From a virus: a stretch of 36,949 nt of DNA. Below the pieces are notes generated by a model, which saw nothing but the letters and a program-made list of their open reading frames with translations, searched no databases and had not been told where the DNA came from. Shown piece by piece: positions 4,296-31,953 of the stretch. A program made the translations under genes and the position numbers. The stretch lies in IMG/VR virus record IMGVR_UViG_3300034012_000707, positions 1-36,949 of that record; one strand, 5' to 3'. Every line of letters starts with the position of its first letter. The stretch's first letter is position 1.

Positions 4296-4735
4296 GTGTT
4301 GAGTTCCTTTAGCTTGGCTTCGATGGCGCAAGCAAAATCACCCCAGTGCTGATTTCCTGAATGGATCTCTTGTATTTCATAAGCCGTCAGCCCAACCCAT
4401 TCACGCTTAGCTGGTTTGCTTGAAATACAAGTAACCGTATACGCTTTACCGCATTGACACTGCCACGCCGTAGGTTCTGGCTCATGCCGCCCCACTGGCT
4501 CTTGAGGTTGTCGCAGTACGGTGATGGCGCTAGCACGGAAGTGATTAAAACCTGTACCTTTACCGGGCGATACTGCGGTCTTTTGCTCTGTCTCCAGTGC
4601 TTGGCGCAGGACGGTGATGGCCTTGTGTGCCTCTCCACGGACTTCACTGTCTCTCAAAGTGCTTGGCGTTCGCGTGAAATTCCCAGTCACACTCTCCAAC
4701 GCCTCAAGCGCCATCTGCATAGCTTCTCTGCTCAT
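4292..4735 (-). CDS. phage accessory paralog 3, with internal repeat
   Basis: Starting at the ATG at 4735 (overlapping the MazG stop codon), this is a 147-residue member of the same family. It begins MSREAMQMALEALESVTG, and the AITVLRQ block occurs twice (HKAITVLRQALE and ASAITVLRQPQE), an internal duplication. The usual LYTAPP block is replaced by TAWQCQCGKAYTVTCISSKP, where C-x-C and a third Cys could bind metal, before KREWVGLTAYEIQ. It ends AIEAKLKELNT like paralog 2. No function is known. Confidence 0.7.
   Translation of the reverse strand: MSREAMQMALEALESVTGNFTRTPSTLRDSEVRGEAHKAITVLRQALETEQKTAVSPGKGTGFNHFRASAITVLRQPQEPVGRHEPEPTAWQCQCGKAYTVTCISSKPAKREWVGLTAYEIQEIHSGNQHWGDFACAIEAKLKELNT
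4694..4735 (-). repeat. direct repeat at start of paralog 3 (copy 2)
   Basis: This is the second copy of the 42-nt repeat, differing from 4254-4295 at one base. It encodes the shared MSREAMQMALEALE start and the codons just after it. Confidence 0.85.
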
Positions 4736-5139
4736 AATTTCCTCGCTGGGCATAGTCTTCCTTGCTCACAAACATCGTTACACGGTGGGCATTTATCCGC
4801 TCTGCGTTGCGCTGCCGCATTCGTATACTTCTCGCCGTAACGTTTTCTCAGCTTTTCTATGTTCTGTTGCAGAACGTATTCGCGGTCTATGCAGAATGCT
4901 TGCCGAATGCCTTGCAAATAGAACTCAATGTCGCCCAGTTCCTCAACAACGCTCTCCAGGTCTAAAGGCTTTTGGTAGATCGCAAACTTTTTAATTGCGT
5001 CTAACAGTTCACCAGCCTCACCAGATACGCCTATTGCCATGTGAAGGGCAAACGCTTGCGTCGGAGTCAGATCGTCGATGATCTCTTCCCCAGGTTTTGC
5101 AAGCTGTCTTACAAGTTCGTGATGTTCTTTCATAGCCAC
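4732..5139 (-). CDS. MazG-like nucleotide pyrophosphohydrolase
   Basis: This 135-residue protein belongs to the all-alpha NTP pyrophosphohydrolase (MazG-like) group, which removes pyrophosphate from (d)NTPs or related nucleotides. The metal-binding pattern is visible as SGEAGELLDAIKK (ExxE, about residues 39-51) and VVEELGDIEFYL (EExxD, about 63-74). Phage MazG proteins are proposed to shift nucleotide or alarmone pools during infection. Unusually, the last 20 or so residues are cysteine-rich (DKCPPCNDVCEQGRLCPARK), with four Cys that could form a small zinc site absent from the basic fold. The two nearby ATG codons (M1 and M3) are both possible starts. Confidence 0.8.
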   Translation of the reverse strand: MAMKEHHELVRQLAKPGEEIIDDLTPTQAFALHMAIGVSGEAGELLDAIKKFAIYQKPLDLESVVEELGDIEFYLQGIRQAFCIDREYVLQQNIEKLRKRYGEKYTNAAAQRRADKCPPCNDVCEQGRLCPARKL

Positions 5140-5140
5140 C

Positions 5141-5467
5141 TCAATTCATTTTTGCAAGAAGATGTCTGTTTGCTTCATCTATTAACATTTCTGATTCGCC
5201 TAACTTTTCATTCCAAACGACAACATGGAAGTACAACTTGATTTTCCAGTTGTGTTTTTCCTTTAGCCATTGCTCGAATTCTTTCTGAACTTTCATATAA
5301 ATAAAAGGCTGAGAAAGCGGTCTGATCGGAACCATGAGCCGCATGACGTTACCAACCGGAGCAACAAATTGCGATTGCTTGATAAATTGATAGCTAAACC
5401 CTGCACCTTCATAACTATCAATAAATTCCTGCCAATAATTGAATAAACGCTTTTCGTTCCTAGTCAT
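5141..5467 (-). CDS. hypothetical protein
   Basis: This 108-residue protein is unrecognised. It is rich in aromatic residues and alternates polar and hydrophobic stretches (NVMRLMVPIRPLSQPFIYMK, KIKLYFHVVVWNEKLGESEM), suggesting a small alpha/beta fold without signal peptide or membrane helix. It starts 3 nt after the stop of the 47-codon gene upstream and ends 1 nt before the MazG gene begins. Confidence 0.6.
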   Translation of the reverse strand: MTRNEKRLFNYWQEFIDSYEGAGFSYQFIKQSQFVAPVGNVMRLMVPIRPLSQPFIYMKVQKEFEQWLKEKHNWKIKLYFHVVVWNEKLGESEMLIDEANRHLLAKMN

Positions 5468-5470
5468 AAG

Positions 5471-5614
5471 TCACCACAACGCTGGTTCAAAAGGAATAGG
5501 CTCAGGCTTAATCTTTTTCGGCTTGACCCATTTGTTACCCACAAACGCAGGAAACGGCCATTTGCCAGCTTTTACAGCCTTCTTGATGATTTGGTCTACT
5601 TTCTCGTCTTTCAT
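5471..5614 (-). CDS. small basic protein, 47 residues
   Basis: This short gene encodes 47 residues, beginning MKDEKVDQIIKKAVKAGKWP and ending IPFEPALW. It is basic and proline-rich, with the motif GKWPFPAFVGNKWVKP. Its ATG (5614-5612) overlaps the TGA of the P-like replication gene, and its stop lies 3 nt before the next start, so it fills the gap exactly. Those junctions are the main evidence. Function unknown; position beside replication genes hints at a DNA-related role. Confidence 0.65.
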   Translation of the reverse strand: MKDEKVDQIIKKAVKAGKWPFPAFVGNKWVKPKKIKPEPIPFEPALW

Positions 5615-5925
5615 GCTCGCCTCATCAGTGATTTAAGTTTGCTGATCTCTTGCAATCCTCGCTCTTTATCAATCGGAGCAGCAAGCATTTTCACGATAGG
5701 CGGCGGCGCCATCCGACAGACGGCGCGAAACTGGATGACATTCGGTGGTCTGTCTGGCAAGCACTCAAGCCCGTAAGCAATCTCATGCGGCCGGAATCCT
5801 GATAGTTCCTTAGCCCAGTTTTGCATCACTTCTTGGATCTGAACGTCTCTGTACTGGTCTACAAAAGCCTTGCCATAGGTAAGCGCCATCTTCTTAAAGA
5901 TGACCTCGATAATTTGAATGTCCAT
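5611..5925 (-). CDS. replication protein P-like (helicase loader family)
   Basis: This 104-residue protein resembles the short lambda P-like proteins of many phages. It has an N-terminal helix with a YGKAF block, a WAKELSGFRPHEIAYGLE helix, then PDRPPNVIQFRAVCR, a pattern typical of the family (a PP-x-x-x-x-F-R-x-x-C-R signature). P proteins load the host replicative helicase at the origin. It follows the O-like gene with a 1-nt overlap, the same order as O-P in lambda. It is much shorter than lambda P (233 residues), so only the conserved N-terminal part is present. Confidence 0.65.
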   Translation of the reverse strand: MDIQIIEVIFKKMALTYGKAFVDQYRDVQIQEVMQNWAKELSGFRPHEIAYGLECLPDRPPNVIQFRAVCRMAPPPIVKMLAAPIDKERGLQEISKLKSLMRRA

Positions 5926-6698
5926 TAGCCCTCCAGCAGATCTTGGTGGGGCGTAATGTCGATCTCTCGCTTATTGCCAAAGATGACATCAATAGCATTC
6001 TTGTAGTGATTGTCTTTTCTTATGTCGTCAGTTATCCACTCGGCCTTAAATCCAGCCCATCCTCGCTCGCATGAAAGCTGAAAGACTTCAGCGATAGTCA
6101 TGCCGGCCGACTTAGCCTCTCTTTTCAAGCCTTCAAATGCTGCGGCTGTAAGCGGAGCCCTTTTCTGTTTTCGCAGCTCTTTGTAAGATCTCCAGAGAAC
6201 ATCAGAAACACCTTCTGGCTTCTCGACAATAATGTTTTTAATCTTATTTGAAGATGAAGATGAAGAAGAAGATGAAGGGGTTGGTTTTTGTTTAACCTCT
6301 TTTATAACCTCATGGTTATCCTCAAGGTTAACCTTACCCTTAGAAACAAGAGCTGGATTACCACCCTTTTTCCCGCCTAAAGCCCTGATTTCTCTAAGAT
6401 TTTCATCACGAATCATGCGCCGCGAGCATATAGAACCATCTTCGGCTACGTCATAAACGCCAGCAACCTTTAATTCGTTAAGCCAAGCGTTAACAACCTC
6501 AAGGGTCTCACCAACCATACGGGCAAGGTTATCTGGAAGGATAACCTTATCGCCAACCTTAAGGTGACCGTAAGGTTTACCTTCGTGCATAAAGCAGATC
6601 ATGTCAATCCAAAGCCCTCGGGCTCCAGTAGAGCAGGATCTAAGGCCTGTATCTCTTAACCAATCTGCCGGGTAAAACTGAAAGGAAGGCCTTTTCAT
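5925..6698 (-). CDS. replication initiator-like protein (O-like)
   Basis: This 257-residue protein starts with a conserved phage domain (SFQFYPADWLRDTGLRSCST, ARGLWIDMICFMHEG, about residues 5-110) that looks like a winged-helix DNA-binding region of DUF1376/replication-protein type. A nine-serine run (about residues 143-151) links it to a C-terminal helical domain (KELRKQKRAPLTAAAFEGLK, AGMTIAEVFQLSCERGWAGF). This arrangement, upstream of a P-like gene, fits an origin-binding initiator like lambda O, whose origin usually lies inside the gene. The serine linker DNA is a candidate variable site. No clear iterons were found by eye. Confidence 0.65.
   Translation of the reverse strand: MKRPSFQFYPADWLRDTGLRSCSTGARGLWIDMICFMHEGKPYGHLKVGDKVILPDNLARMVGETLEVVNAWLNELKVAGVYDVAEDGSICSRRMIRDENLREIRALGGKKGGNPALVSKGKVNLEDNHEVIKEVKQKPTPSSSSSSSSSNKIKNIIVEKPEGVSDVLWRSYKELRKQKRAPLTAAAFEGLKREAKSAGMTIAEVFQLSCERGWAGFKAEWITDDIRKDNHYKNAIDVIFGNKREIDITPHQDLLEG
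6249..6275 (-). repeat. TCT/TCA trinucleotide run encoding nine serines
   Basis: Nine consecutive serine codons (TCA and TCT, coding strand minus) form an imperfect trinucleotide tract in the O-like gene. Slippage here would change linker length by whole residues without breaking the frame. Confidence 0.8.
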
Positions 6699-7135
6699 TT
6701 AGCTTTCCCTTCTTCTTTATTCAAATAAAAATTCCAAGCCGCATGAAAGAACTGTCTTGCGCTTTTACCTAGCTCGTATACAAGTTTTGCGTTTGGATTG
6801 TCTTCGGGTAAAGAAACGCTTACGGCCTGGAAGCCAGCAATCAAAAAAGCCGTTTCATTTCTAAATGCTGGCTCGTCAGGAAGCCTTGAGATAATTTCGT
6901 TTAGCAAGTCAGAGCTGTCGTGGAAAACTTTATGGCAGGTCTCACACAAGCAAGCTAACTGCTCATTTTCGTAATCCCATACATCGCGGTTACATATGTA
7001 TTGCTTGTGATGTACATGCAATGTTTTCTCGCCGCTCTTACAGACGCTGCATAAAAAATCATTAGCCTGAAAAACTTCAAGACGTTTTTTTTGCCATCTC
7101 GGATCGAGATATTGGCTGCGATAAGACTTCGCCAT
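6695..7135 (-). CDS. HNH-type endonuclease
   Basis: This 146-residue protein has the zinc-HNH core: CSVCK, then LHVHHKQYICNRDVWDYENE, then CLCETCHKVFH. Two CxxC pairs bind zinc, VHH supplies the first catalytic histidines, and N and the last H follow. I chose the ATG at 7135 because GAGAGG stands 6 nt upstream; an in-frame GTG at 7165 has no good site. The C-terminal 80 residues are helical and unrecognised. Phage HNH proteins may serve replication, recombination or packaging; here it sits first upstream of the replication genes. Confidence 0.8.
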   Translation of the reverse strand: MAKSYRSQYLDPRWQKKRLEVFQANDFLCSVCKSGEKTLHVHHKQYICNRDVWDYENEQLACLCETCHKVFHDSSDLLNEIISRLPDEPAFRNETAFLIAGFQAVSVSLPEDNPNAKLVYELGKSARQFFHAAWNFYLNKEEGKAK

Positions 7136-11672: not shown

Positions 11673-12018
11673 CCCATGTCAAAGTTGCCTCATCCCAACT
11701 ATACATTTTGCCATCGGAAGGCATTGCTACCGGAGGCTCCCACTGAGCGTCTGCGTTAAGCGTCCAACTAGCAAAAGGTTGTGGTGGCACGAAGGCGTCA
11801 ATGTCTGCTCGGTAGGTGTAGCCAATCCCTGCGTAATTTTTCCTGATGTTGCCGTTGTAGCTGGTCTGCTTCCAAGTGCCGCCAAGAATCTTCTCAAGAT
11901 GCGCTGCGCCGATGTGTTCTTTCTCAACGCCAGAAGCATCAGACATGTCCTTGTTATCAACGACAACCACTTGGGTTACAACGTTGTTCTCATCAATCTT
12001 TGCGTAGTGTCCCATCAC
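11644..12018 (-). CDS. small virion-associated-type protein of environmental phages
   Basis: This 124-residue protein begins MGHYAKIDENNVVTQVVVVD and carries GTWKQTSYNGNIRKNYAGIG, then PPQPFASWTLNADAQWEPPV and YSWDEATLTWVEN. I recall the same blocks in many marine and freshwater phage genomes, usually near tail-fibre genes; the function has not been defined. The protein is soluble and beta-rich. It follows the oxygenase gene with an ATGA overlap. Confidence 0.7.
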   Translation of the reverse strand: MMGHYAKIDENNVVTQVVVVDNKDMSDASGVEKEHIGAAHLEKILGGTWKQTSYNGNIRKNYAGIGYTYRADIDAFVPPQPFASWTLNADAQWEPPVAMPSDGKMYSWDEATLTWVENGLSNAP

Positions 12019-12623
12019 GCCTCCAGCTTTAATCCAGTTAAGTCCATCTCTTCCCCGACAACACCGACTGGGAAGGTATTAAACGATAGTGAAATCCGAG
12101 TGTCATCGCCTTTGACTTCAGGAACCATGTGCGTCAGTGACGATGGAAACAGAATCAGCTTGCCAGCAGTGGCTTCAAACCACCAGCTTTCAGAGTTGTA
12201 CGGGTTCCACTGCTCAGGTGGAAACTTAATCTGCTGCCAGCCATCACGGTAGAAGTAAATCCTGTCATCAGCGTTAGTCTGAACATAAAACACGCCTGAG
12301 ATGTAACTATTTGGGTGTGCGTGTTTGTGATGGTATTGCCCTGGTTCACTGTAGTTGCACCAGCTCTGAGTGACTCTCAGGCTTACATTGTGCTTTGGAT
12401 TGACTGTGCTTTTGAAGTAATCCGATACCGCATCTTCTATGAACGAACGCAGGGACGTTAGCGCAGGGTCACGCAGTACAAAGTTGTTCGTACTTGTGGT
12501 GTTACCCATGTTAGGTCGTGTTGGCAGTTCACGGATGAAGAACAACTCCTCATCGCTCAGCGGTCTACCAAGCTCTGCAAAGCCTACAGGGATAGGGAAT
12601 AAGTTATGCAACTGCACGTTCAA
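12015..12623 (-). CDS. 2OG-Fe(II) oxygenase family protein
   Basis: This 202-residue protein is of the putative 2OG-Fe(II) oxygenase group frequent in aquatic phages (PF13759-like). It shows HHKHAHPNSYISGVFYV (H101-x-H103 as metal ligands), LILFPSSLTHMVPEVKGDDT (H165) and TRISLSFNTFP (R176 for 2-oxoglutarate). Such enzymes hydroxylate or demethylate proteins or nucleic acids. In phages they lie near tail genes and their substrates are unknown. Residues 1-90 are a less conserved cap. It overlaps its neighbours on both sides. Confidence 0.85.
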   Translation of the reverse strand: MNVQLHNLFPIPVGFAELGRPLSDEELFFIRELPTRPNMGNTTSTNNFVLRDPALTSLRSFIEDAVSDYFKSTVNPKHNVSLRVTQSWCNYSEPGQYHHKHAHPNSYISGVFYVQTNADDRIYFYRDGWQQIKFPPEQWNPYNSESWWFEATAGKLILFPSSLTHMVPEVKGDDTRISLSFNTFPVGVVGEEMDLTGLKLEA

Positions 12624-12859: not shown

Positions 12860-14653
12860 TTATTGATTGATTTTTATGATTACGATACCGGAGCCGCCGT
12901 TTGCGCCCGTACGATTGCTTCCAGTGTTACCAGGAGCGCCCCCGCCGCCACCACCAGTGTTATCTGTACCAGGAGTTGAAGTCGTTCCACCGCCAGTACC
13001 GCCGGCTCCGCCGCCTCCGCTTCCGCCTGCCCCGCCAGCACCACTATAGGAACCTCCGCCGCCGCCGCCAGCATAGGTTACTGAAGTACCAGTAATACTA
13101 GATGCCGTGCCGTTACCGCCCGCCCCTCCTAAATTACTAGTTGTGTTGCCACCAGTCGCTCCAGCACCGCCGCCACCTGACCCTCCATTGTTATTATTGG
13201 AAGATGATCCGCCGCTGTTTCCTTGGCTAGGTGTGGTACTAGGGGTATTGCCTGAGCCGCCTGCCCCAACATTTTGACCACCATTGCCACCGCCGCTTCC
13301 TCCAGAAGCGCCAAGATTGTTTGGTGAGGTGTTGTTACCTGTACCACCGCCACCGCCACCATAAGCCTTAAAAGTATTAGCACCTGCCCCAGAAGGACTT
13401 TCAGTAATTGGAGATCCTGCTATAGACGAATCGCCGCCAGAACCACCACGACCGCTTGATACGCCAGCCCCTGCTGCACCGATTGTAATTACATATTCTT
13501 GACCGCCCGTAAGAGTCAATCCTGTGCCAGTTCTAAAACCACCAGCACCACCACCACCACCACCTTTTTCAGCCGGTTGCGATCCACCACCGGCGCCACC
13601 ACCCGCAACCACAAGATAGTCAACACTGGTAACACCTGTCGGGCATGTCCACTTAGTAGTGCCTTTGAACGTAAATACGGTTTGGGATGCTACGGTGTAC
13701 TTGAGGATAACTATGCCGGAGCCGCCTGCGCCAGCCGACGCCGACCCACTGTCGCCGTTATTTCTTGTACCACCGCCACCACTACCTGTATTTGTGGCCC
13801 CTGATCCGGCTCCAGTTGGGTTAAACACACCATTTCCACCAATACTAGAACCACCTGACCCACCAGGATTACCGCCACCGCCGCCACCACCAGCATATGT
13901 TACGGAAGACCCTGTGATTGTTGATGCCTGCCCCGGCCCACCATTTCCGCCAGTACCTGCCGAACCATTAGATCCAGCACCTCCAGCACCTCCGCCACCA
14001 CCACTACCAGTATTGGAAACTGATCCGTTATTCCCGCCATCAAAACCCTGATAAGGAACAGCAGGGGCGCCATTACCTCCAGCGGATGGTTGGCTTGGTG
14101 TATCTCCTGACCCACCGTTTGGATAAATATCATAAGCCCCGCCACCTCCGGAACCACCATTTTTTCCATTAGATTGATTAAACGCTCCACCACCGCCACC
14201 ACCAGTTGACACAATCCCCGGAGAAGCAAAAGGAGATGGACTTGACCCACCTACAATAGACGAATTAAAACCATTTCCACCAACAGCGGCTGCGCTGTTA
14301 AAACCGGTTCCTGCCGTTCCAGCACCGCCTACAGTAATAACGTAATCAGTGTTAGCAGAAACGGTTGCCGCTGTTCCAGTTCTAAAACCGCCAGCACCAC
14401 CACCGCCACCTGTTGTACACCCGCCACCGCCGCCACCACCAACTACTAGGTAATCAACACTAGTAACACCAGCAGGGCAAGTCCAAGTAGATATACCGGT
14501 AAAGGTTTGGACGACGGTGTAGCCCGAAGATGCAACCGGCCAAATACCCTGACTTTTGGCTATCATCTGCTCCATGAGCGACCACACGCCTTTTGCTACA
14601 GACGTGGTAGGAATATTTGCCGGGCCAATGACCCCACCGTTACCTATGGGCAT
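12860..14653 (-). CDS. glycine-rich tail adhesin with internal duplication
   Basis: This 597-residue protein is probably a distal tail-fibre or adhesin protein. After a head region (about residues 1-44) it has two tandem units. Each opens with a beta motif containing TWTCPAGVTSVDYLVV or KWTCPTGVTSVDYLVV (about residues 55-75 and 332-352), followed by some 250 residues of glycine runs with Ser, Asn and Thr. Units of this type (Gly-rich domains) may form polyglycine-II helix bundles, as in T4-like gp38 adhesins, with variable loops contacting the host. Each half ends SGIVILKYTV or SGIVIIKINQ. No trypsin-like or enzymatic motif is visible. Function by analogy. Confidence 0.75.
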   Translation of the reverse strand: MPIGNGGVIGPANIPTTSVAKGVWSLMEQMIAKSQGIWPVASSGYTVVQTFTGISTWTCPAGVTSVDYLVVGGGGGGGCTTGGGGGAGGFRTGTAATVSANTDYVITVGGAGTAGTGFNSAAAVGGNGFNSSIVGGSSPSPFASPGIVSTGGGGGGAFNQSNGKNGGSGGGGAYDIYPNGGSGDTPSQPSAGGNGAPAVPYQGFDGGNNGSVSNTGSGGGGGAGGAGSNGSAGTGGNGGPGQASTITGSSVTYAGGGGGGGNPGGSGGSSIGGNGVFNPTGAGSGATNTGSGGGGTRNNGDSGSASAGAGGSGIVILKYTVASQTVFTFKGTTKWTCPTGVTSVDYLVVAGGGAGGGSQPAEKGGGGGGAGGFRTGTGLTLTGGQEYVITIGAAGAGVSSGRGGSGGDSSIAGSPITESPSGAGANTFKAYGGGGGGTGNNTSPNNLGASGGSGGGNGGQNVGAGGSGNTPSTTPSQGNSGGSSSNNNNGGSGGGGAGATGGNTTSNLGGAGGNGTASSITGTSVTYAGGGGGGSYSGAGGAGGSGGGGAGGTGGGTTSTPGTDNTGGGGGGAPGNTGSNRTGANGGSGIVIIKINQ

Positions 14654-15035: not shown

Positions 15036-16571
15036 TTAACCCCATATCATTGCGGCAGTAACGGCTTTTATACCGCTCCCACCTGAAACACTCGTCCAGC
15101 TCGTTACCCCAGACCCGTTTGTTGTCAAAACCTGTCCATTGCTACCTGTAGTAGTCGGTAAAACAAGCTCGTAATCTACAGCCAAAGCTGATGGAGCCCT
15201 GACCCCAATAAAATTAGTATTGCCTAAATTATAAAAATTAACATCATAGCCACCTCTAACCCTTAAGCCCCAAGTGGCATCCCAGGTCAAATCCGATAGA
15301 CCGCCAAAAGAACCGGCATTGTTGTATTGAATTTGTCCGCTAGAACCCCCAGGCGATCCGCTTCCTCCGGGAACGTTTACGGTTACAGCACCGCCGACTG
15401 CCGTAGCCGTTACACCAGAACCCGTAAAATTAAACGATGAAACCGCTGCCGTTATCTGGGTTCCCTCATCTGAAACTGCAATATTTGTTCCTGTTCCAGA
15501 CGGTCCCGTGGCCCCCGTTGGCCCGGTGATAGAAGCCCCCGTCGGCCCCGTGATGGAAGCACCTTGGGGCCCTGTTGGTCCGGTAATAGATACTCCAGGA
15601 TCGCCCTGGGCTCCCGTTGGCCCGGTAATGGAAGCACCGGTTGGGCCGGTAATAGATGCCCCTGTCGGGCCTGTAATTGAGGGGCCTGTAGCCCCCGTGG
15701 GTCCCGTGATCGAAGCCCCAGAACTCCCCGTGGGTCCCGTGATAGATGCACCTGTTGGCCCCGTAATGGAAGCACCCTGAGCACCCGTTGGGCCCGTGAT
15801 TGAGGCCCCAGGACTACCCGTTGGCCCTGTAATTGACGCACCAGAAGCCCCGGTTGGCCCCGTAGGACCGACGCTGCCAGATCCGCCGGTGATTGAAACC
15901 GTAACCGCATTTCCGACTGCTGTTGCCGTTACGCCAGCACCAACAAAATCAAAAGATGTAACACTTGTGGTTAACGTCGTTCCTTCGTCCAAAACGGCGA
16001 TCGCGCTACCACCGCCCCCTGCCGGACCTGTAGGCCCGGTCACTCCCTGGCTTCCAGTAGGCCCGGTTATAGATGGCCCCGTAGCCCCCGTCGGTCCCGG
16101 AACGGTTGAAGCCGCCCCCGTTGGTCCGGTTATAGATGCCCCTTGGGGTCCTGTAGCGCCCGTTGGTCCGGGAACTGTTGATGCGGCTCCCTGGGCTCCC
16201 GTTGGGCCAGTAATAGAAGCTCCCTGGCTTCCTGTAGGTCCCGTTATGGAAGCACCAGGGCTTCCCGTCGGACCGGTTACAGAGGCTCCCGTAGGCCCCG
16301 TTATAGACGTTCCTGCCGGTCCTTGGCTCCCCGTAGGCCCTGTAGGTCCGGTAGCCCCGCCGCCAACAATCGTTACGGTCACATCACCGCCGACCGCCGT
16401 AGCAGTGCCGCCAGGACCGGTTATGTTTAGCGAATTCAAACCAGAGGTTATTTGAACCCCGGCATTACTTACCGCAATATCAGTTCCGCTTCCCGCCGGA
16501 CCTGTTGGGCCGATTACGCCCTGGTCTATAACTAGCGTAATCTGGTTTGCGCCTGTAACTGTCGTGCTCAA
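15036..16571 (-). CDS. collagen-like tail fibre protein
   Basis: This 511-residue protein has a modular layout. Three related beta units (about residues 30-72, 186-229 and 371-415) each read [10 protein letters not shown]... or [10 protein letters not shown]... and close with [14 protein letters not shown]-like strands. Two long (Gly-Pro-Thr-Gly)-type collagen stretches (about 73-185 and 230-370, with repeats such as SITGPTGAS) lie between them. A C-terminal globular head follows (about 420-511, [20 protein letters not shown]). Collagen-like repeats give trimeric rods, so this is most likely a tail or side fibre. The long open frame on the opposite strand here is an artefact of the repeat. 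Confidence 0.85.
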
Positions 16572-17050
16572 TTTGTCACCCCGTTCGATCTCACCAAGAA
16601 CAAGAGAAAAATAATCAAGTCTTGCGCCGGGGTTGAACCGCTGGCAGGAATTGCAACCGTAATGTTTCCAGAGAAACCGACCGGGTTTGCAGCGTTAATA
16701 TCTAGTTCTGTGTCAGTAGAAAGAACCGACCACGCGGATTCGTCGATTACCAATGTGAACGAACCGCCGGAAAGATTTTGATTTGCAATCGTTAGGCTTA
16801 CAGGCGACGGAGGCGGCGTGTAGTCTGCTATGTCGAACGTGAGCCCATATCGAGAGTCTCGAACGTTAGAAAGCTGGCGACGGATTATTTGGCTTGTAAT
16901 CGTGGAACCCGTCAGATTGCGCGGAGTACCGTCTGAATTATTAAGCGTCAGATTCCAGTAAGTCTTTTGATTATAGACAAGCTCACCGGCAATGATTTGA
17001 TTGTCGAACCCACTAACTTGCGTAAGCGTGTTCTTGTTAAAGACGGCCAT
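16568..17050 (-). CDS. putative baseplate/fibre-associated structural protein
   Basis: This 160-residue protein is beta-rich and begins [20 protein letters not shown], with [20 protein letters not shown] following. The N-terminal layout resembles the attachment domain of baseplate upper proteins (BppU-like) that join fibres to the tail, but similarity is only by pattern. It lies just upstream of the collagen-like fibre with a 4-nt overlap, so an adaptor role is plausible. Its ATG has GAGGGAAC before it. Confidence 0.5.
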
Positions 17051-17118: not shown

Positions 17119-18681
17119 TTAAGATTCTATCACCGCTTGTCTGTAAAAAGCTAGATTCGTTTTTAGTCGCTCATCATCAGGTGACAACTCAACTGCTTTC
17201 TCGCCGTACTCTAATGCCTGTTTGCGCATTCCCAAGTGATGAGCGGCAATCGCCGCTAAATCCCAGGGTTTCATGCCCCAGACTTCAGGGTCAACCGTGT
17301 AAACCAATTGTTTGTCATTGATTGTCAGCGCCATCGTCGCCGCGTGAAGGCACTCTTTCCACAATCCTTTCATATAGCAAGAGTTGGCAAGATCAACCCA
17401 CGGTTCCCTACAGTTTGGAGCCTCTGCAACTGCCCGTCGATGCCAAGATAAAGCCTCCCACTGATTACCCTTTTTGTCATATGCCTGCCCCATCAGACGC
17501 ATGGCATAAGCTCGTTCGTTGTACCACTTAGCCTCGGGGTTATCGAGATATTTCTTAAACGCTTCTATTGCTTCATCCCAAAGATTGTAAAAGGTTAGTT
17601 CCCGCGCAAAGTAAAACGCGTTCCTTGGGCAAGCAGGATCTTCCTTGACTGCAAGCCTAAGCAAATCCATGTATTGCCCCCTGCTCTTTGTTGCGTCTGG
17701 ATAGTGAGATACCAAGAGCGCAGGAGTCTCTGCATAAACCTCTGTAATTCTTTGATCGGGTCTCGGGTATTCGTGGACCGGATGATGCCAGTGGTAACCA
17801 TGTCGAGCGTGAATCTTCTCGTACATGAAATTGATGCCGCAGCCCCAGCAGAATTGATAACGCAGCCTTGTGGTATCAGGGTTCCATACTCGCTCAATTT
17901 CGTAACGCCAGCCTTCTTCTAGCACCTCGTCTAGATCCAACGAAATGCAAACGTCTACATCAGGAACCAAACACAAAGCAGTGTCTCGCGCTATGTCGAA
18001 CCTCCAAGGTCTGACCGAGATTTGATGGGTAATGATTCCGCATTCTTTCGCCAAACTTACAGTCTCATCTGTCGATCCTGTGTCAGCAATCAAAACGTAA
18101 TCTGCATCTTTTGCTGATTCATAAAAGCGCTTTACAAACTGCGCTTCATTTTTTGAGATAGCGTAAACGCAAAACTTAAGCCTTCGCTTATAAACATAAA
18201 CGCCTATCTCGTTTTCAACCTCATGCTCATGAGACTTACCGAAAGTCGCGTGAACTTCCTCATGGCTCCAATTGTCAGTGACATGCTTTTCGTGCGGGTT
18301 ACCCTCAAATTCATCTTGCGGGTAATACCCTAAAGGAATGGATACGATGGTGTAGTGCGCCGCTTCCCTGCATCGACTTAAAAGATGCTGCGCCTCTTCA
18401 ACTTCCATATGCTCAAGAACATCCCCAAGAATGATTGCATCCACTTTGGGGATTTGTAAATTGCGAATATCTGTAATTGCCAGCTGATCGTACAGGTCTT
18501 GCAACCCGAACTTTTCAACATAAGGCTGGTGAATCTCTACGCCTGTCCATATTTGCCCTTCTTTTTTTAAGAGCTTGGCGTAGGTTCCCGATCCGCAGCC
18601 GACATCTAAAACGGTCTTGGGGTTGATGCGATTAAATACTTTTGTGATGTAGTGTTTGCCACTGTTGCTTGAATAGGGCAT
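17119..18681 (-). CDS. methyltransferase-glycosyltransferase-TPR fusion protein
   Basis: This is a three-part protein of 520 residues. Residues 1-165 are a class I SAM-dependent methyltransferase: TVLDVGCGSGTYAKLL (motif I, 26-33) and ILGDVLEHM (motif IV/V region, 86-92). Residues 169-345 resemble a GT2 glycosyltransferase: CVYAISKNEAQFVKRF, ADTGSTDETVSLAKECG (200-207) and the D-x-D of LDLDEVLEEGW (249-251). About 350-520 is a TPR-like helical array. I start at the ATG at 18681, 1 nt after the upstream stop; an earlier TTG would overlap that gene. The gene lies between the tail tip gene set and fibre genes, so it may modify tail or fibre proteins or host surface sugars; this is inference. Confidence 0.85.
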   Translation of the reverse strand: MPYSSNSGKHYITKVFNRINPKTVLDVGCGSGTYAKLLKKEGQIWTGVEIHQPYVEKFGLQDLYDQLAITDIRNLQIPKVDAIILGDVLEHMEVEEAQHLLSRCREAAHYTIVSIPLGYYPQDEFEGNPHEKHVTDNWSHEEVHATFGKSHEHEVENEIGVYVYKRRLKFCVYAISKNEAQFVKRFYESAKDADYVLIADTGSTDETVSLAKECGIITHQISVRPWRFDIARDTALCLVPDVDVCISLDLDEVLEEGWRYEIERVWNPDTTRLRYQFCWGCGINFMYEKIHARHGYHWHHPVHEYPRPDQRITEVYAETPALLVSHYPDATKSRGQYMDLLRLAVKEDPACPRNAFYFARELTFYNLWDEAIEAFKKYLDNPEAKWYNERAYAMRLMGQAYDKKGNQWEALSWHRRAVAEAPNCREPWVDLANSCYMKGLWKECLHAATMALTINDKQLVYTVDPEVWGMKPWDLAAIAAHHLGMRKQALEYGEKAVELSPDDERLKTNLAFYRQAVIES

Positions 18682-18682
18682 G

Positions 18683-18973
18683 TCATGTCCAAGGTAAGGG
18701 TGGGTCAATAGTAGAGGGGTTCGCCTTTTCCGAAAGTCTTGTCGTGATGATTGATTCGGTTCCTTCTTTTGAGACTTTATCCCATACCCAGGTTAAAACC
18801 TGATCTTGGGTAAGCTGGTCAAATGGGATAAATGTATCGCCAGGAAGCCCGAGCGTCGTCACACCGTCAAATGATTCTGTATCTTGATTTACGATCCAAG
18901 AAATTCTGATGACTACATCAGTCAAAGAATCAAGTGATTTTAGACATTCTAGTTTAGTGACTGACCAGTTCAT
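18683..18973 (-). CDS. small conserved tail-region protein
   Basis: This 96-residue protein resembles short proteins next to tail-tip genes of marine phages. It has ECLKSLDSLTDVVIRISWIV at the start and DQLTQDQVLTWVWDKVSKEG near the middle. Function unknown to me. It overlaps the J-like gene stop by ATGA and sits directly upstream of the methyltransferase fusion. Confidence 0.6.
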   Translation of the reverse strand: MNWSVTKLECLKSLDSLTDVVIRISWIVNQDTESFDGVTTLGLPGDTFIPFDQLTQDQVLTWVWDKVSKEGTESIITTRLSEKANPSTIDPPLPWT

Positions 18974-22530: not shown

Positions 22531-22971
22531 TTACTCTCGAAAAAATGTTGCTTGCATGGGCTTGAATTTATATCGTGTGTAATCAATCTCCGGGCTATTG
22601 TGCATAAGACTAGTTAGCACTACTTGAACACGATTTTGGTCTAACATGTCCTGCGCCAATTTATTAAACCTTAACCAAAGCCTTCCGCCGACGCTTGTAT
22701 TACGATATTCGGGCATAACCCACCAACCAACCTCGTGCAATTCTTTCACCGTGCTGTTCCAAAAGTTGCTTGTTACATAAGCTGCCAGGAACCCGCGAAA
22801 CTGATCGTCAATAAGAACAAAGCCTCGACCTTTTATCATCTCGTAAAAGAGCGTTTTTACATGCCCTTCATTCTGATTTTGCTTTAGTGTCTCTATTCCT
22901 GCTTCATCTGCATAAGCCTTCATCATTTCAATAAGATGCGGCATATCGTATTTGGTTGCGTATCTCATCAT
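22531..22971 (-). CDS. GNAT-family acetyltransferase-like protein
   Basis: This 146-residue protein has the GNAT pattern: an N-terminal helix pair (IEMMKAYADEAGIETLKQNQ), strands FVLIDDQFRGFLAAYV, then HEVGWWVMPEYRNTSVGGRL, where the R-x-x-x-x-G-G loop binds acetyl-CoA pyrophosphate, and a following helix. Phages of aquatic habitats often carry a GNAT here, in the lambda K/I position between the L-like and J-like genes. The acetylated target is unknown. It overlaps the upstream gene (ATGATGA) and ends 3 nt before J. Confidence 0.8.
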   Translation of the reverse strand: MMRYATKYDMPHLIEMMKAYADEAGIETLKQNQNEGHVKTLFYEMIKGRGFVLIDDQFRGFLAAYVTSNFWNSTVKELHEVGWWVMPEYRNTSVGGRLWLRFNKLAQDMLDQNRVQVVLTSLMHNSPEIDYTRYKFKPMQATFFRE

Positions 22972-28549: not shown

Positions 28550-28890
28550 CAGACTGCAACCGTTGGTTCGTTACGGTAACAAGTAAACGTTACCCATTGC
28601 CTATCGTCATGCTCGTAAACCTCAGCGATCCGCCAAGACTTTTCGCGAAAGGAAATGCTGTAAGCCTCTTGAGCGTCTGAGATCGTACGCATGTTGGGCG
28701 TGTAGTTCACAGTGAACTCAATCATATTGTCGTATTGCCGAAACTTCTCAAGCGTCCGAATGCGGTTATGCACAGACTTCGTTTTTGCTCGCGTCTGAAA
28801 CCATGCGGTCTCTGTCGTTGTCTGCTCGCCAAGATTGGTAAGCCCAAACGTCAGATTGTTGATGGTGATTTGATCGACGCGTAAAACCAT
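28549..28890 (-). CDS. head closure/head-tail joining protein
   Basis: This 113-residue protein is beta-rich and has the layout of phage head-tail joining proteins: TNLGEQTTTETAWFQTRAKT, a central IEFTVNYTPNMRTI strand pair and a closing SWRIAEVYEHDDRQWVTFTC. This matches the SPP1 gp16/HK97 gp7-like pattern where the closing W-x-I motif fits a neck ring. Gene order (connector, this gene, terminator-like, tube) supports it. Confidence 0.6.
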   Translation of the reverse strand: MVLRVDQITINNLTFGLTNLGEQTTTETAWFQTRAKTKSVHNRIRTLEKFRQYDNMIEFTVNYTPNMRTISDAQEAYSISFREKSWRIAEVYEHDDRQWVTFTCYRNEPTVAV

Positions 28891-29534
28891 TACATCACCA
28901 AAGTTTTATAGGGTCGCAATAACTGGTCAATCGCCCACGGAAGCTGATACTGCTTAGACTCGGAAATTGCCGACCGGTTATTGTAGAAATGCGTGAGAAG
29001 CATGAGACCAGCTTGTTTAACCACGGGATACTGACCGATAACACTGCCTTGTAGTGTGTACTGACAAAGCATTGGAGCGGTCATGTAAGTATTGACGTTA
29101 TTGGGAACCTCGAAAAGAACTAACTTATTTCCTGTCGGGTCATAGTAATACTGGGAGCTTGCAATCGTCGTAAGAACCGGAGGGTTCAAGTCGTTGTAAT
29201 ACTTGACCCAGTTGATCGTCACGCCGTTTTGCGAAACTTCGGGAAGATCCAGCGAAACCGGAGCCGCCATCAAACCCGAGATTAGATACGAAGCCTGATA
29301 CGTCACATTGAAGATTGGTACACCTAAATAATCCTCAATTGCCATCCGCGCTGCCAGCTCAAGCTGCGACAAAAACTCATCTTGAGATTCATCCGCAAAC
29401 AAATTGAGCTGATTGGTGATTTCGTCGAGCGTAAGCCATTGCGTAACCGGATCGCGGTTACTCTGAATAACTTTCGAGTAGTTGAACGGGTTTCTAGAAC
29501 CCGCTCCGAAATTACCTTGCAGTTGGCTTGGCAT
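28890..29534 (-). CDS. head-tail connector (gp6-like)
   Basis: This 214-residue protein follows the capsid genes. It has a typical helical start (WLTLDEITNQLNLFADESQD, then LELAARMAIEDYLGVPIF) and a C-terminal QAGLMLLTHFYNNRSAISES block, like HK97 gp6-type adaptors that form a ring on the portal. An inserted beta region (about 70-160) makes it longer than minimal gp6. It starts 1 nt after the second capsid gene ends. Confidence 0.7.
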   Translation of the reverse strand: MPSQLQGNFGAGSRNPFNYSKVIQSNRDPVTQWLTLDEITNQLNLFADESQDEFLSQLELAARMAIEDYLGVPIFNVTYQASYLISGLMAAPVSLDLPEVSQNGVTINWVKYYNDLNPPVLTTIASSQYYYDPTGNKLVLFEVPNNVNTYMTAPMLCQYTLQGSVIGQYPVVKQAGLMLLTHFYNNRSAISESKQYQLPWAIDQLLRPYKTLVM

Positions 29535-29535
29535 A

Positions 29536-30564
29536 TCAGGTTCCGATCAAACGAACGCCAGCGGTTACATCACGAACAGTCGAGACCAAACGCTTTTCCG
29601 CGTAGATCGTAATTGTCCCAGGCTGCGTTTGCTCCATGCGTTGCAGCGTCATTTCTGAATAGTCAACGATCCACATAAACCGAGGCCAGTTGGCTAGGTA
29701 AATGGGAGAAGCGCCGGCAGCGGGAGCATCTAAGTAGGGATTGGCAATAACCGGCCATCCCATGATGTTTACAGCAGGACCCTCACCTTCTTCGCCAACT
29801 TCAACAAGCGCGTAAGAATTGCCGCTGTGCGTGTATTTCCTAAGCGTCTGGATCGCCGTGGGGTGCATCATCCAAGCCGTTCCCGGCATCTTCCAAAACT
29901 GCCCTGGAAGAGCGTTAGCAACGTCCACTAGAGTTTCCCACTCAATGCCGCCGCTATGCGTATAGCCGACCGTGTTAAGCGTATGGATGCCGTTAGTAAT
30001 GGCCGTACCTGAACTACCGTAAGCCGCCGTAGAACCCGCTGTTCCTGAGTACATCTTAAGACCACGCAAGCCGTTAGTTGCGCCTGTACTTGTCGTAGTC
30101 GATCCTGCCTGATCGTCATTGATCGCCATAGACGCGGCTTCGATCTGGCTGAATTCCATCGCAAGATCTTCAGCGAGCGCTGCATCTAAACCATTAATAT
30201 CATCCATTGCCGCTGCGCGGATAGGCATCTGAGCGCTAATAACGCGCATTGGAAGCTGCCAAATGCTCGTGGCAATGTTGGGAGATCCGCTGTTAGCGTT
30301 TACTGTGTAACCCCAAGGGTTTGTAGAGTTAGCCGCGTTACCGGTCTTAACAACAAACTGAATATCCGAATCCGAGGTCATCGTCTGGTTAGCGTAAACC
30401 CGGAAAGGGTTCCAATAGCGCAGACTTGCAAATACATCTTCGTTGTAGACCCGGCCACCAACGCCGGAGCCCGAGCCCGTGAGGGCTGAGGCTTCAGCGA
30501 GGTTCACCGTGGCTTTGCCCTCGTGGAGAGCCTGCTTAAGCCCTTCTAAAATTACCTGTTTCAT
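29536..30564 (-). CDS. second major-capsid paralog, lacking N-terminal scaffold-like region
   Basis: This 342-residue protein is homologous to the capsid protein encoded just upstream over nearly its full length. Shared blocks are EASALTGSG (residues 24-32; 107-115 in the other), VKTGNA, GYTVNANSG versus GYTVQNNGA, ATSIWQ, MPIRAAAMDDINGL versus FPIRTAALDDIDGL, GLRGLKMY versus GLRGLDQY, and the end TLQRMEQTQPGTITIYAEKR versus RYDQTLPGSITFYGETR. It lacks roughly 83 N-terminal residues and starts near the expected mature end. It may be a vertex or minor capsid subunit like T4 gp24, or a co-assembled variant. GGAGAG stands 3 nt before the ATG and can be hidden in a hairpin. Confidence 0.85.
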   Translation of the reverse strand: MKQVILEGLKQALHEGKATVNLAEASALTGSGSGVGGRVYNEDVFASLRYWNPFRVYANQTMTSDSDIQFVVKTGNAANSTNPWGYTVNANSGSPNIATSIWQLPMRVISAQMPIRAAAMDDINGLDAALAEDLAMEFSQIEAASMAINDDQAGSTTTSTGATNGLRGLKMYSGTAGSTAAYGSSGTAITNGIHTLNTVGYTHSGGIEWETLVDVANALPGQFWKMPGTAWMMHPTAIQTLRKYTHSGNSYALVEVGEEGEGPAVNIMGWPVIANPYLDAPAAGASPIYLANWPRFMWIVDYSEMTLQRMEQTQPGTITIYAEKRLVSTVRDVTAGVRLIGT

Positions 30565-30603: not shown

Positions 30604-31953
30604 TTAAGCCGCAGTGCCGGTGGAACGGTAACGTACGCCAGCGTTTGGATCGCGCACAGAAGTTGCTGCGCGAGTCTCGCCGTAGAACGTGATCGAGCCT
30701 GGGAGCGTCTGGTCATAACGACGCAGAACCATGCTTAGACGCATAACGATGGTATGAAACTGCTGGAAGTCAGCAAAGTACATTGGGTAGTAAGACGTCG
30801 TACCTGCCGCGCCGGTTGTGGGCTGAGAAGGATTGTCAACGTACTTATTAACAACCACATCGAAGCCAAGCAGCTTACCAACGATGCCATCGTCACGGCT
30901 CAGACCGTCGATGTAGATTGGGCGCTTCTGATCATCAACCAAACCACGGATGCCCTGCAACAAGATTGGGTTAATCATGAAGCGAGCAGTCGGGGTCCAG
31001 TATTGCTGCGGCAAGCTGTAGATGAAGTTAACAACGTCTTTATAAACGATGTTATTTGCACCGACAGTGTTTGCGTTGGTGGTCAACTGGTCATAGGTTG
31101 CAAGGCTATGCAGACCGTTCGTGGTTGCGGTTCCCGAGGTTCCAAAAGCAGCCGTGGAAACTGTACCGCCCGTGTAGGTTGCATTTGCGCCCGCATACTG
31201 ATCCAAACCGCGCAGACCATCAGCGCCGCCAGTTGATACCGAGGTTCCGGTTCCCGATTGATCGTTGTTCTGGATCATCGAGGTTGCCATTGCCTGCTGG
31301 AATTCCATTAGCATGTCGTCAACAACGTTGGGCTCAAGACCATCAATATCGTCGAGCGCAGCAGTACGGATTGGGAACTGTGCGTTCAAGTCTTTGAGGA
31401 TCACCTGCCAAATCGACGTTGCTTCAGTCGTGGATGCGCCGTTATTTTGCACCGTATAACCCCACTGAGCGCCAGCGTTGCCGGTCTTTACGCGGAACTG
31501 ATAAGCCGAACCGTCAGTTGCAACGATGCGGGAAAGATCCATCATCGGATTGCCAAGACGCTTAGCGGCAAACACGGGGTCATAAGCGGTACGGCCACCA
31601 ACGTCATAACCAGAACCGGTAAGCGCAGATGCTTCACGAATGTACCCATCGAACTGATCAACCGATTCAAAGATCTTTACTTCGCGCTCAACCTGATTGC
31701 CGCCCTTCATGTACTCTTTGAGCACATCGCGGAAGCGACGGTTTGCCTCACCACGAACAGTCTTGTGGATGGGGCGAATGATAGAGGGAGCGGCAATTTT
31801 TGCCTCAAGAGCGGCAATTTTTTGCTCCGTTTCTGCTTTGACTGCCTGAACAGCTTCGGTAACTTGAGTCTTAACAGCCTCAGCGGTTTCAGCAAGTTTT
31901 GCAGCGTTAGATGCTTCGATTGCATCCAGTTTTTCAATAACTTTTTCAAGCAT
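30604..31953 (-). CDS. major capsid protein, HK97 fold
   Basis: This 449-residue protein is the main capsid subunit. Residues 1-55 are a charged coiled coil (EKVIEKLDAIEASNAAKLAE, AVKAETEQKIAALEAKI), the scaffold-like delta region removed by protease in HK97 phages. The linker to residue 106 contains RRFRDVLKEYMKGG, and the folded shell part starts near REASALTGSG (107). The order protease then capsid is normal. The C-terminal end TFYGETRAATSVRDPNAGVR matches the family. Cleavage position is inferred: somewhere between about 60 and 107. Confidence 0.93.
   Translation of the reverse strand: MLEKVIEKLDAIEASNAAKLAETAEAVKTQVTEAVQAVKAETEQKIAALEAKIAAPSIIRPIHKTVRGEANRRFRDVLKEYMKGGNQVEREVKIFESVDQFDGYIREASALTGSGYDVGGRTAYDPVFAAKRLGNPMMDLSRIVATDGSAYQFRVKTGNAGAQWGYTVQNNGASTTEATSIWQVILKDLNAQFPIRTAALDDIDGLEPNVVDDMLMEFQQAMATSMIQNNDQSGTGTSVSTGGADGLRGLDQYAGANATYTGGTVSTAAFGTSGTATTNGLHSLATYDQLTTNANTVGANNIVYKDVVNFIYSLPQQYWTPTARFMINPILLQGIRGLVDDQKRPIYIDGLSRDDGIVGKLLGFDVVVNKYVDNPSQPTTGAAGTTSYYPMYFADFQQFHTIVMRLSMVLRRYDQTLPGSITFYGETRAATSVRDPNAGVRYRSTGTAA

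What the first reader, a model, noticed from the sequence alone, without database searches (positions are those of the whole stretch)
17119..18681. Methyltransferase-glycosyltransferase-TPR fusion inside the tail gene cluster
A single protein joins a SAM methyltransferase, a GT2-like glycosyltransferase with D-x-D, and a TPR array. Its place between J-like and fibre genes suggests that it modifies a virion or host-surface component, perhaps glycosylating and methylating the collagen-like or glycine-rich fibre, which have many Ser/Thr/Asn sites. Such a tail-glycan tailoring enzyme would be unusual.
Basis: partly seen in the sequence, partly recalled or inferred. Interest (0 to 1): 0.65.

Follow-up and report, generated by a model that had tools for sequence, protein, structure and literature searches.

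The report
Phage enzyme predicted to sugar-coat collagen-like fibre
A single phage protein joins a methyl-adding, a sugar-adding and a substrate-gripping part, and because its relatives in unrelated phages and in spore-forming bacteria keep turning up beside collagen-like proteins rich in Gly-Pro-Thr, it most likely puts (methylated) sugars on the threonines of the phage's own collagen-like tail fibre.

Summary
On the minus strand, 17119-18681 encodes a 520-aa protein: class I methyltransferase (MT), GT-A glycosyltransferase with DxD, and TPR superhelix (model pLDDT 90.7); SAM and sugar-nucleotide motifs are intact and conserved. Evidence: (1) GT-TPR genes lie within 5 kb in 18/120 GPT-pattern viral loci against 0/118 Gly-Pro-Gln controls, outside the window's phage group; (2) of 80 bacterial relatives, mostly Firmicutes, 44 have a collagen-like ORF within 500 bp, Thr commonest at Y; (3) a sister phage group has Gly-X-Ser collagen, no GT-TPR, and another MT+GT2+GT9 cassette directly behind the fibre gene, also in cultured phage P19250A; (4) C. 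difficile SgtA, also GT-A+TPR, puts GlcNAc on Thr of GPT repeats (PMC7157674); (5) the best fold matches are peptide S-glycosyltransferases. The MT fusion recurs in unrelated phages and bacteria. The donor sugar and what the MT methylates (sugar is my guess) are inferred. Exceptions: one GPT-fibre contig lacks GT-TPR; some phages carry GT-TPR with only a short GPT tract. No glycan was measured.

The parts
17119..18681 (-). MT-GT-TPR gene (520 aa), ATG start at 18681
18184..18681 (-). class I SAM methyltransferase domain, residues 1-166
   Evidence: Pfam; homologs in DSL-LC01, Phrappuccino, prophiGD91-2; PDB 3dli E 1.8e-7
17677..18183 (-). GT-A glycosyltransferase domain, about residues 167-335, DTGSTDET and DLDE motifs
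   Evidence: PHROG 13126; invariant residues; SunS/ThuS fold match
17122..17676 (-). TPR superhelix, about residues 336-520
   Evidence: Pfam TPR_2/TPR_1; model helices 334-519
15036..16571 (-). collagen-like fibre, 25 GPT triplets (shuffled mean 1.9, max 7), triplets often interrupted; predicted substrate
   Evidence: tail-fibre PHROGs
16568..17050 (-). conserved 160-aa protein between the enzyme and the fibre gene ('P160'), used as anchor
18683..18973 (-). DUF7936 protein whose stop abuts the enzyme's start; a DUF7936 gene also lies 0.5 kb upstream of the fusion in L045
   Evidence: Pfam PF25590 E 7.5e-15 and 2.1e-15 for L045
18970..22527 (-). J-like tail protein with a short GPT tract (4 GPT)
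   Evidence: PHROG 5616
12015..12623 (-). 2OG-Fe(II) oxygenase in the fibre region; possible fibre hydroxylase, role unknown
   Evidence: PF13759 E 1.5e-22; homologs in many relatives
22531..22971 (-). GNAT acetyltransferase in the tail module; possible further modifier, role unknown
   Evidence: PF00583 E 1.8e-4, PHROG 1249 E 9.7e-11

Best explanation
The protein is a phage-encoded protein glycosyltransferase of the GT-A + TPR kind with its own methyltransferase. The TPR superhelix is thought to hold the collagen-like chain, the GT-A domain moves a sugar from a nucleotide donor (UDP-GlcNAc by analogy with SgtA) to the hydroxyl of Thr in Gly-Pro-Thr triplets of the fibre encoded at 15036-16571 (and perhaps the short GPT tract of the J-like protein), and the fused MT then O-methylates the attached sugar, capping or changing it. 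The product would be a rod-like, sugar-coated tail fibre. Shown: the domains, intact motifs, the fibre's GPT repeats, the recurrent neighbourhood with GPT collagens in unrelated phages and bacteria, and the change of enzyme set where the fibre repeat is Gly-X-Ser. Inferred: that the fibre is the acceptor, that Thr is the site, the donor sugar, and that the MT acts on the sugar rather than on the protein.
For: Strong GT-TPR hits lie 0.1-4.8 kb from the collagen motif in 18/120 GPT-pattern loci against 0/118 GPQ-pattern loci (Fisher p 3.9e-6), none carrying the window group's J, P160 or terminase; in whole records strong hits in 13/50 against 2/50 (p 0.004). GT-TPR in other phage contexts (L020, L021, L033, L035-L037, DSL-LC01, MT838491) sits with collagen-like ORFs whose commonest Y residue is Thr. 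Of the 80 best bacterial relatives, mostly Firmicutes, 53 have a collagen-like ORF in the locus, Thr the commonest Y residue, and 44 have it within 500 bp. In the window's group all 54 loci (some from the same contig) that hold both anchors carry GT-TPR; 26 of 32 distinct fibres beside it are long and Thr-rich. The sister group L176-L184 and isolate P19250A have Gly-X-Ser fibres, no GT-TPR match, and MT + GT2 + GT9 directly behind the fibre gene. The same MT family is fused to GT-TPR in unrelated phages (L214/L424, L423), precedes it as MT-GT-TPR in Brevibacillus, Paenibacillus and Shouchella, and lies in glycosyltransferase clusters of mycobacteriophages. SgtA, 358 aa GT-A + TPR encoded beside bclA3, adds beta-O-GlcNAc to Thr in the GPT collagen region (PMC7157674). 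Best matches covering GT and TPR parts are SunS/ThuS, peptide S-glycosyltransferases (Z 21-23).
Against: No glycan, donor or activity was measured. L160, a 40.8-kb record with 61 GPT triplets, has no GT-TPR (only a weak GT2-like ORF in the head region). Six distinct fibres beside GT-TPR have only 3 Thr triplets (L057, L077, L081, L111, L118, L171), so there the substrate would be short or elsewhere. More distant jumbo-phage homologs (PaBG, Lu11) lie in structural gene regions without an annotated collagen gene. Most GPT-pattern loci (102/120) show no strong GT-TPR, partly from truncated contigs. The window's own fibre is an interrupted collagen (longest perfect run 6 triplets). Most relatives have no fused MT, so methylation is optional.
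Confidence: 0.66

Rival explanations
1. Host-surface modifier: the GT-TPR alters the host's LPS or capsule during infection to block superinfection, as has been proposed for glycosyltransferases in the host-recognition regions of pelagimyophages; the MT caps the new sugar.
For: PHROG 13126 and record annotations call relatives beta-1,4-glycosyltransferase or LOS glucosyltransferase; such a role is proposed in PMC7029224. The gene lies in the host-recognition region.
Against: Neighbourhood follows collagen GPT repeats across phages and Firmicutes; most of those Firmicutes have no LPS (own knowledge); the GT set changes together with the fibre's acceptor residue; fold nearest to peptide GTs.
Confidence: 0.15
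2. Fibre glycosylation as above, but the MT methylates the protein (a side chain or the N-terminus of the fibre) or a free nucleotide-sugar, not the attached glycan.
For: MT is often absent while GT-TPR is present, so its substrate need not be the GT's product; the fold matches are spread over sugar, keto-acid and polyketide methyltransferases.
Against: Same MT family in mycobacteriophage glycosyltransferase clusters and fused to GT-TPR in phages and bacteria; the sister cassette pairs another MT with GTs.
Confidence: 0.25
3. The TPR protein is mainly a folding or assembly chaperone for the collagen-like fibre and its enzyme domains are vestigial.
For: TPR superhelix and adjacency to fibre genes; several phage fibres need dedicated chaperones (own knowledge).
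Against: The catalytic motifs of both enzymes are conserved, including invariant DxDE and DTGSxD.
Confidence: 0.05

Closest known systems
SgtA, O-GlcNAc transferase of the C. difficile spore protein BclA3 (PMC7157674)
   Same: About 355-aa GT-A + C-terminal TPR module; gene beside a collagen-like GPT-repeat protein; acceptor there is Thr in the GPT region.
   Different: Phage gene in a tail module; fused methyltransferase; SgtA's sequence was not compared here; donor here not known.
SunS/ThuS peptide S-glycosyltransferases (PDB 7msp, 7msn, 7msk)
   Same: Best fold match over GT and following helical part; SunS is prophage-borne; peptide acceptor.
   Different: Acceptor is Cys of a bacteriocin (own knowledge); no MT; about 14-18% identity.
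GmaR of Listeria (PDB 22ao, 7x9r)
   Same: GT-A part with weak sequence match E 9.4e-4; GT + TPR and flagellin glycosylation (own knowledge).
   Different: Also an anti-repressor; no MT; different acceptor.
Mimivirus L230 (reviewed in PMC4691112, PMC9614988)
   Same: Virus-encoded fused enzyme that glycosylates the virus's own collagen-like proteins.
   Different: GT + lysyl hydroxylase acting on hydroxylysine; giant virus of amoebae; no relation by sequence tested.
Mycobacteriophage virion glycosylation (Freeman et al. 2023, as cited in PMC12619734)
   Same: Phage virion proteins carry glycans; the window's MT has homologs in mycobacteriophage GT clusters.
   Different: Sites are C-termini of capsid and tail tube subunits, not collagen repeats; separate genes.
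B. anthracis BclA glycan with anthrose, a 2-O-methyl sugar (PMC6222408)
   Same: Methylated sugar on a collagen-like surface protein.
   Different: Multi-gene pathway on a spore; enzymes not compared here.

Membership tests
PHROG 13126 GT-TPR family | Full-length profile match over GT and TPR parts | tested here: met
   E 4.1e-103, residues 169-516 against 2-357 of 394
Class I SAM methyltransferase | Glycine-rich motif I and Rossmann-like fold | tested here: met
   VLDVGCGSG; Pfam PF13649 and PF08241 over cut-off; fold
GT2-type GT-A glycosyltransferase | DxD motif and GT-A fold | tested here: met
   D249/D251 invariant; SunS, WrtF, TarS fold matches; PF00535 only 20.6 bits against cut-off 23.3
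SgtA-like collagen O-GlcNAc transferase | GT-A + C-terminal TPR of about 350 aa | tested here: met
SgtA-like collagen O-GlcNAc transferase | Encoded beside a GPT-repeat collagen-like protein | tested here: met
   window 15036-16571, one gene away; relatives
SgtA-like collagen O-GlcNAc transferase | Sequence orthology with SgtA | not tested
   SgtA sequence was not fetched
SgtA-like collagen O-GlcNAc transferase | UDP-GlcNAc donor and Thr acceptor | not testable with these tools
   needs enzymology and mass spectrometry
SunS S-glycosyltransferase (NCBIfam TIGR04195) | Equivalog cut-off of 350 bits | tested here: not met
   20.7 bits

The most novel reading that the evidence does not exclude
Tail-fibre glycosylation is a general, exchangeable property of phages with collagen-like fibres: the repeat's acceptor residue and the enzyme cassette change together (Gly-Pro-Thr with GT-TPR, sometimes with fused MT; Gly-X-Ser with MT+GT2+GT9), the GT-TPR enzymes being shared with collagen-like protein systems of Firmicutes.
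Probability: 0.45. Interest if true: 0.8.

Novelty: new variant of a known kind. Interest (0 to 1): 0.64.

Why it matters
Phage virion glycosylation has been reported on capsid and tail tube of mycobacteriophages. If this reading is right, a large group of uncultured phages, some cultured ones (P19250A, DSL-LC01) and many Firmicutes use dedicated enzymes to sugar-coat collagen-like proteins. It gives a direct test (mass spectrometry of fibres of two existing isolates), names the sites (Thr or Ser at Y), and offers compact one-gene enzymes for making glycosylated, perhaps O-methylated, collagen-like protein in E. coli.

Tried and rejected
Glycine-rich fibre (12860-14653) as substrate: 0 GPT triplets and hardly any Gly-X-Y. 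Plus-strand reading: full of stops. TTG start: not preferred. The first genome-contig scan with the single protein found no relative; the alignment did. HNH-AP2 endonuclease genes next to GT-TPR in some relatives suggest mobility, but no mechanism for the gene's two alternative positions was shown; the tree of the GT part puts upstream-position and MT-fused members on several branches, without a test of gain or loss. Limits on handles restricted the whole-record association test to 50 records a side. No paper in the library joins phage, glycosyltransferase, tetratricopeptide and collagen-like. The full text of Freeman et al. 2023 is not held.

Full report
What is there. The interval 17119-18681 is a minus-strand gene of 520 codons with ATG at 18681. 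Residues 1-166 are a class I methyltransferase, about 167-335 a GT-A glycosyltransferase, about 336-520 a TPR superhelix. AlphaFold2 on a 28-row alignment gives mean pLDDT 90.7, pTM 0.76. The SAM motif VLDVGCGSG, the acidic residue of GVEIH, and GDVLEHM are kept or conservatively varied in the MT relatives aligned, and DTGSxD and DxDE of the GT are invariant in 28 rows. So neither enzyme looks dead at sequence level.

The record. G000 is an IMG/VR virus record of 36,949 bases with head, tail, lysis and recombination genes. The nearest cultured relative by terminase is Methylophilaceae phage P19250A (66%), so a methylotrophic betaproteobacterium or a relative is a plausible host (inference).

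The fusion. The GT-TPR part is a common phage gene without the MT: nearly 40 viral contigs at 41-72% identity have an ORF that begins at the GT. In the window's group it occupies one of two places, just upstream of the 160-aa protein (as in the window) or just before a holin-like gene. The MT is fused in the window's near-identical relatives L002/L003 and in L045/L056, L065/L136, L108, L114/L117/L119 and L123, at 55-58% MT identity, and in two phages outside that group, L214/L424 (533-aa ORF) and L423 (797-aa ORF with a further sugar-transferase domain). In Brevibacillus, Paenibacillus and Shouchella an MT-GT-TPR protein of 531-557 aa directly precedes a GT-TPR gene. Separate homologs of the MT sit in glycosyltransferase clusters of mycobacteriophages Phrappuccino and prophiGD91-2, and in DSL-LC01, 3 kb from a GT-TPR gene that itself adjoins a tryptophan halogenase and, two genes on, two collagen genes.

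The substrate. The fibre at 15036-16571 holds 25 GPT triplets against a shuffled mean of 1.9. Four tests bear on the link. First, viral contigs chosen only by a GPT-GPT-GPT DNA pattern carry a strong GT-TPR in the locus in 18 of 120 cases, those chosen by GPQ-GPQ-GPQ in 0 of 118 (Fisher p 3.9e-6). None of the 18 bears the window group's J, P160 or terminase markers; three share a distant holin-like gene. Relatedness among the 18 was not assessed, so the p-value is nominal. Second, of the 80 best bacterial relatives, mostly Bacilli and Clostridia, 53 have a collagen-like ORF in the locus and 44 within 500 bp, with Thr the commonest Y residue by far (2112, next Ala 395). Third, in the window's group the 54 loci with both anchors (some from one contig) all have GT-TPR, and 26 of 32 distinct neighbouring fibres are long and Thr-rich. 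Fourth, a sister group with 75-77% identical P160 has collagen of the Gly-X-Ser kind, no GT-TPR match in its records, and instead MT + GT2 + GT9 genes directly behind the fibre gene in L176-L184 and in isolate P19250A (Ser at 224 of 280 Y positions). Because the two groups are two clades, the fourth is one evolutionary contrast, not many.

Mechanism. The best matches covering the GT and helical parts are SunS and ThuS, which glycosylate peptides; the TPR part also resembles that of O-GlcNAc transferase. SgtA of C. difficile has the same GT-A + TPR layout and size, is encoded next to bclA3, and was shown in vitro to add beta-O-GlcNAc to Thr of peptides from the GPT collagen region (PMC7157674). 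I therefore propose Thr O-glycosylation of the phage fibre followed by methylation of the sugar. The methyl step is the weakest: it rests on fusion, on MT genes in other glycosyltransferase clusters of phages, and on the precedent of methylated sugars on BclA (anthrose, PMC6222408).

Limits. No chemistry was seen. L160 has GPT repeats without GT-TPR; six distinct fibres next to GT-TPR have only a short GPT tract; distant jumbo-phage homologs lack an annotated collagen neighbour. The bacterial adjacency has no matched random background. Orthology with SgtA was not tested.

Verdict. Observation confirmed; interpretation supported in its main line and sharpened to Thr of GPT repeats. Not a new kind of enzyme domain, but a new variant: a fused methyl- and glycosyltransferase for a phage collagen-like fibre, with an exchangeable enzyme-acceptor pairing that two existing isolates can test.

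Noticed in passing
window 29536-30564 and 30604-31953: Two neighbouring genes both match the major head protein PHROG 10; a capsid gene followed by a similar-sized gene also exists in P19250A at 4600-5988 and 6066-7124.
   Followed up: no
window 12015-12623: 2OG-Fe(II) oxygenase in the fibre region, conserved in many relatives and in L176; might hydroxylate the fibre.
   Followed up: partly
window 22531-22971: GNAT acetyltransferase between tail genes, conserved across the group.
   Followed up: no
L005 9508-10020, L013 2110-2622, L021 9417-9998, L027 134-616: HNH-AP2 endonuclease genes directly upstream of GT-TPR, a possible driver of its alternative positions.
   Followed up: no
G034 28786-29832 (L428): GT-TPR match with one in-frame TAG, perhaps an amber-recoded phage.
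   Followed up: no
L047 12222-13793 (DSL-LC01): Tryptophan halogenase gene beside GT-TPR, near two collagen genes.
   Followed up: no
L020 8882-9991: 2OG-Fe(II) oxygenase gene directly upstream of GT-TPR in another phage lineage.
   Followed up: no
L435 495-2768: Contig of an Anaerolineales MAG with MT + Gly_transf_sug + GT-TPR in one 758-aa frame.
   Followed up: partly
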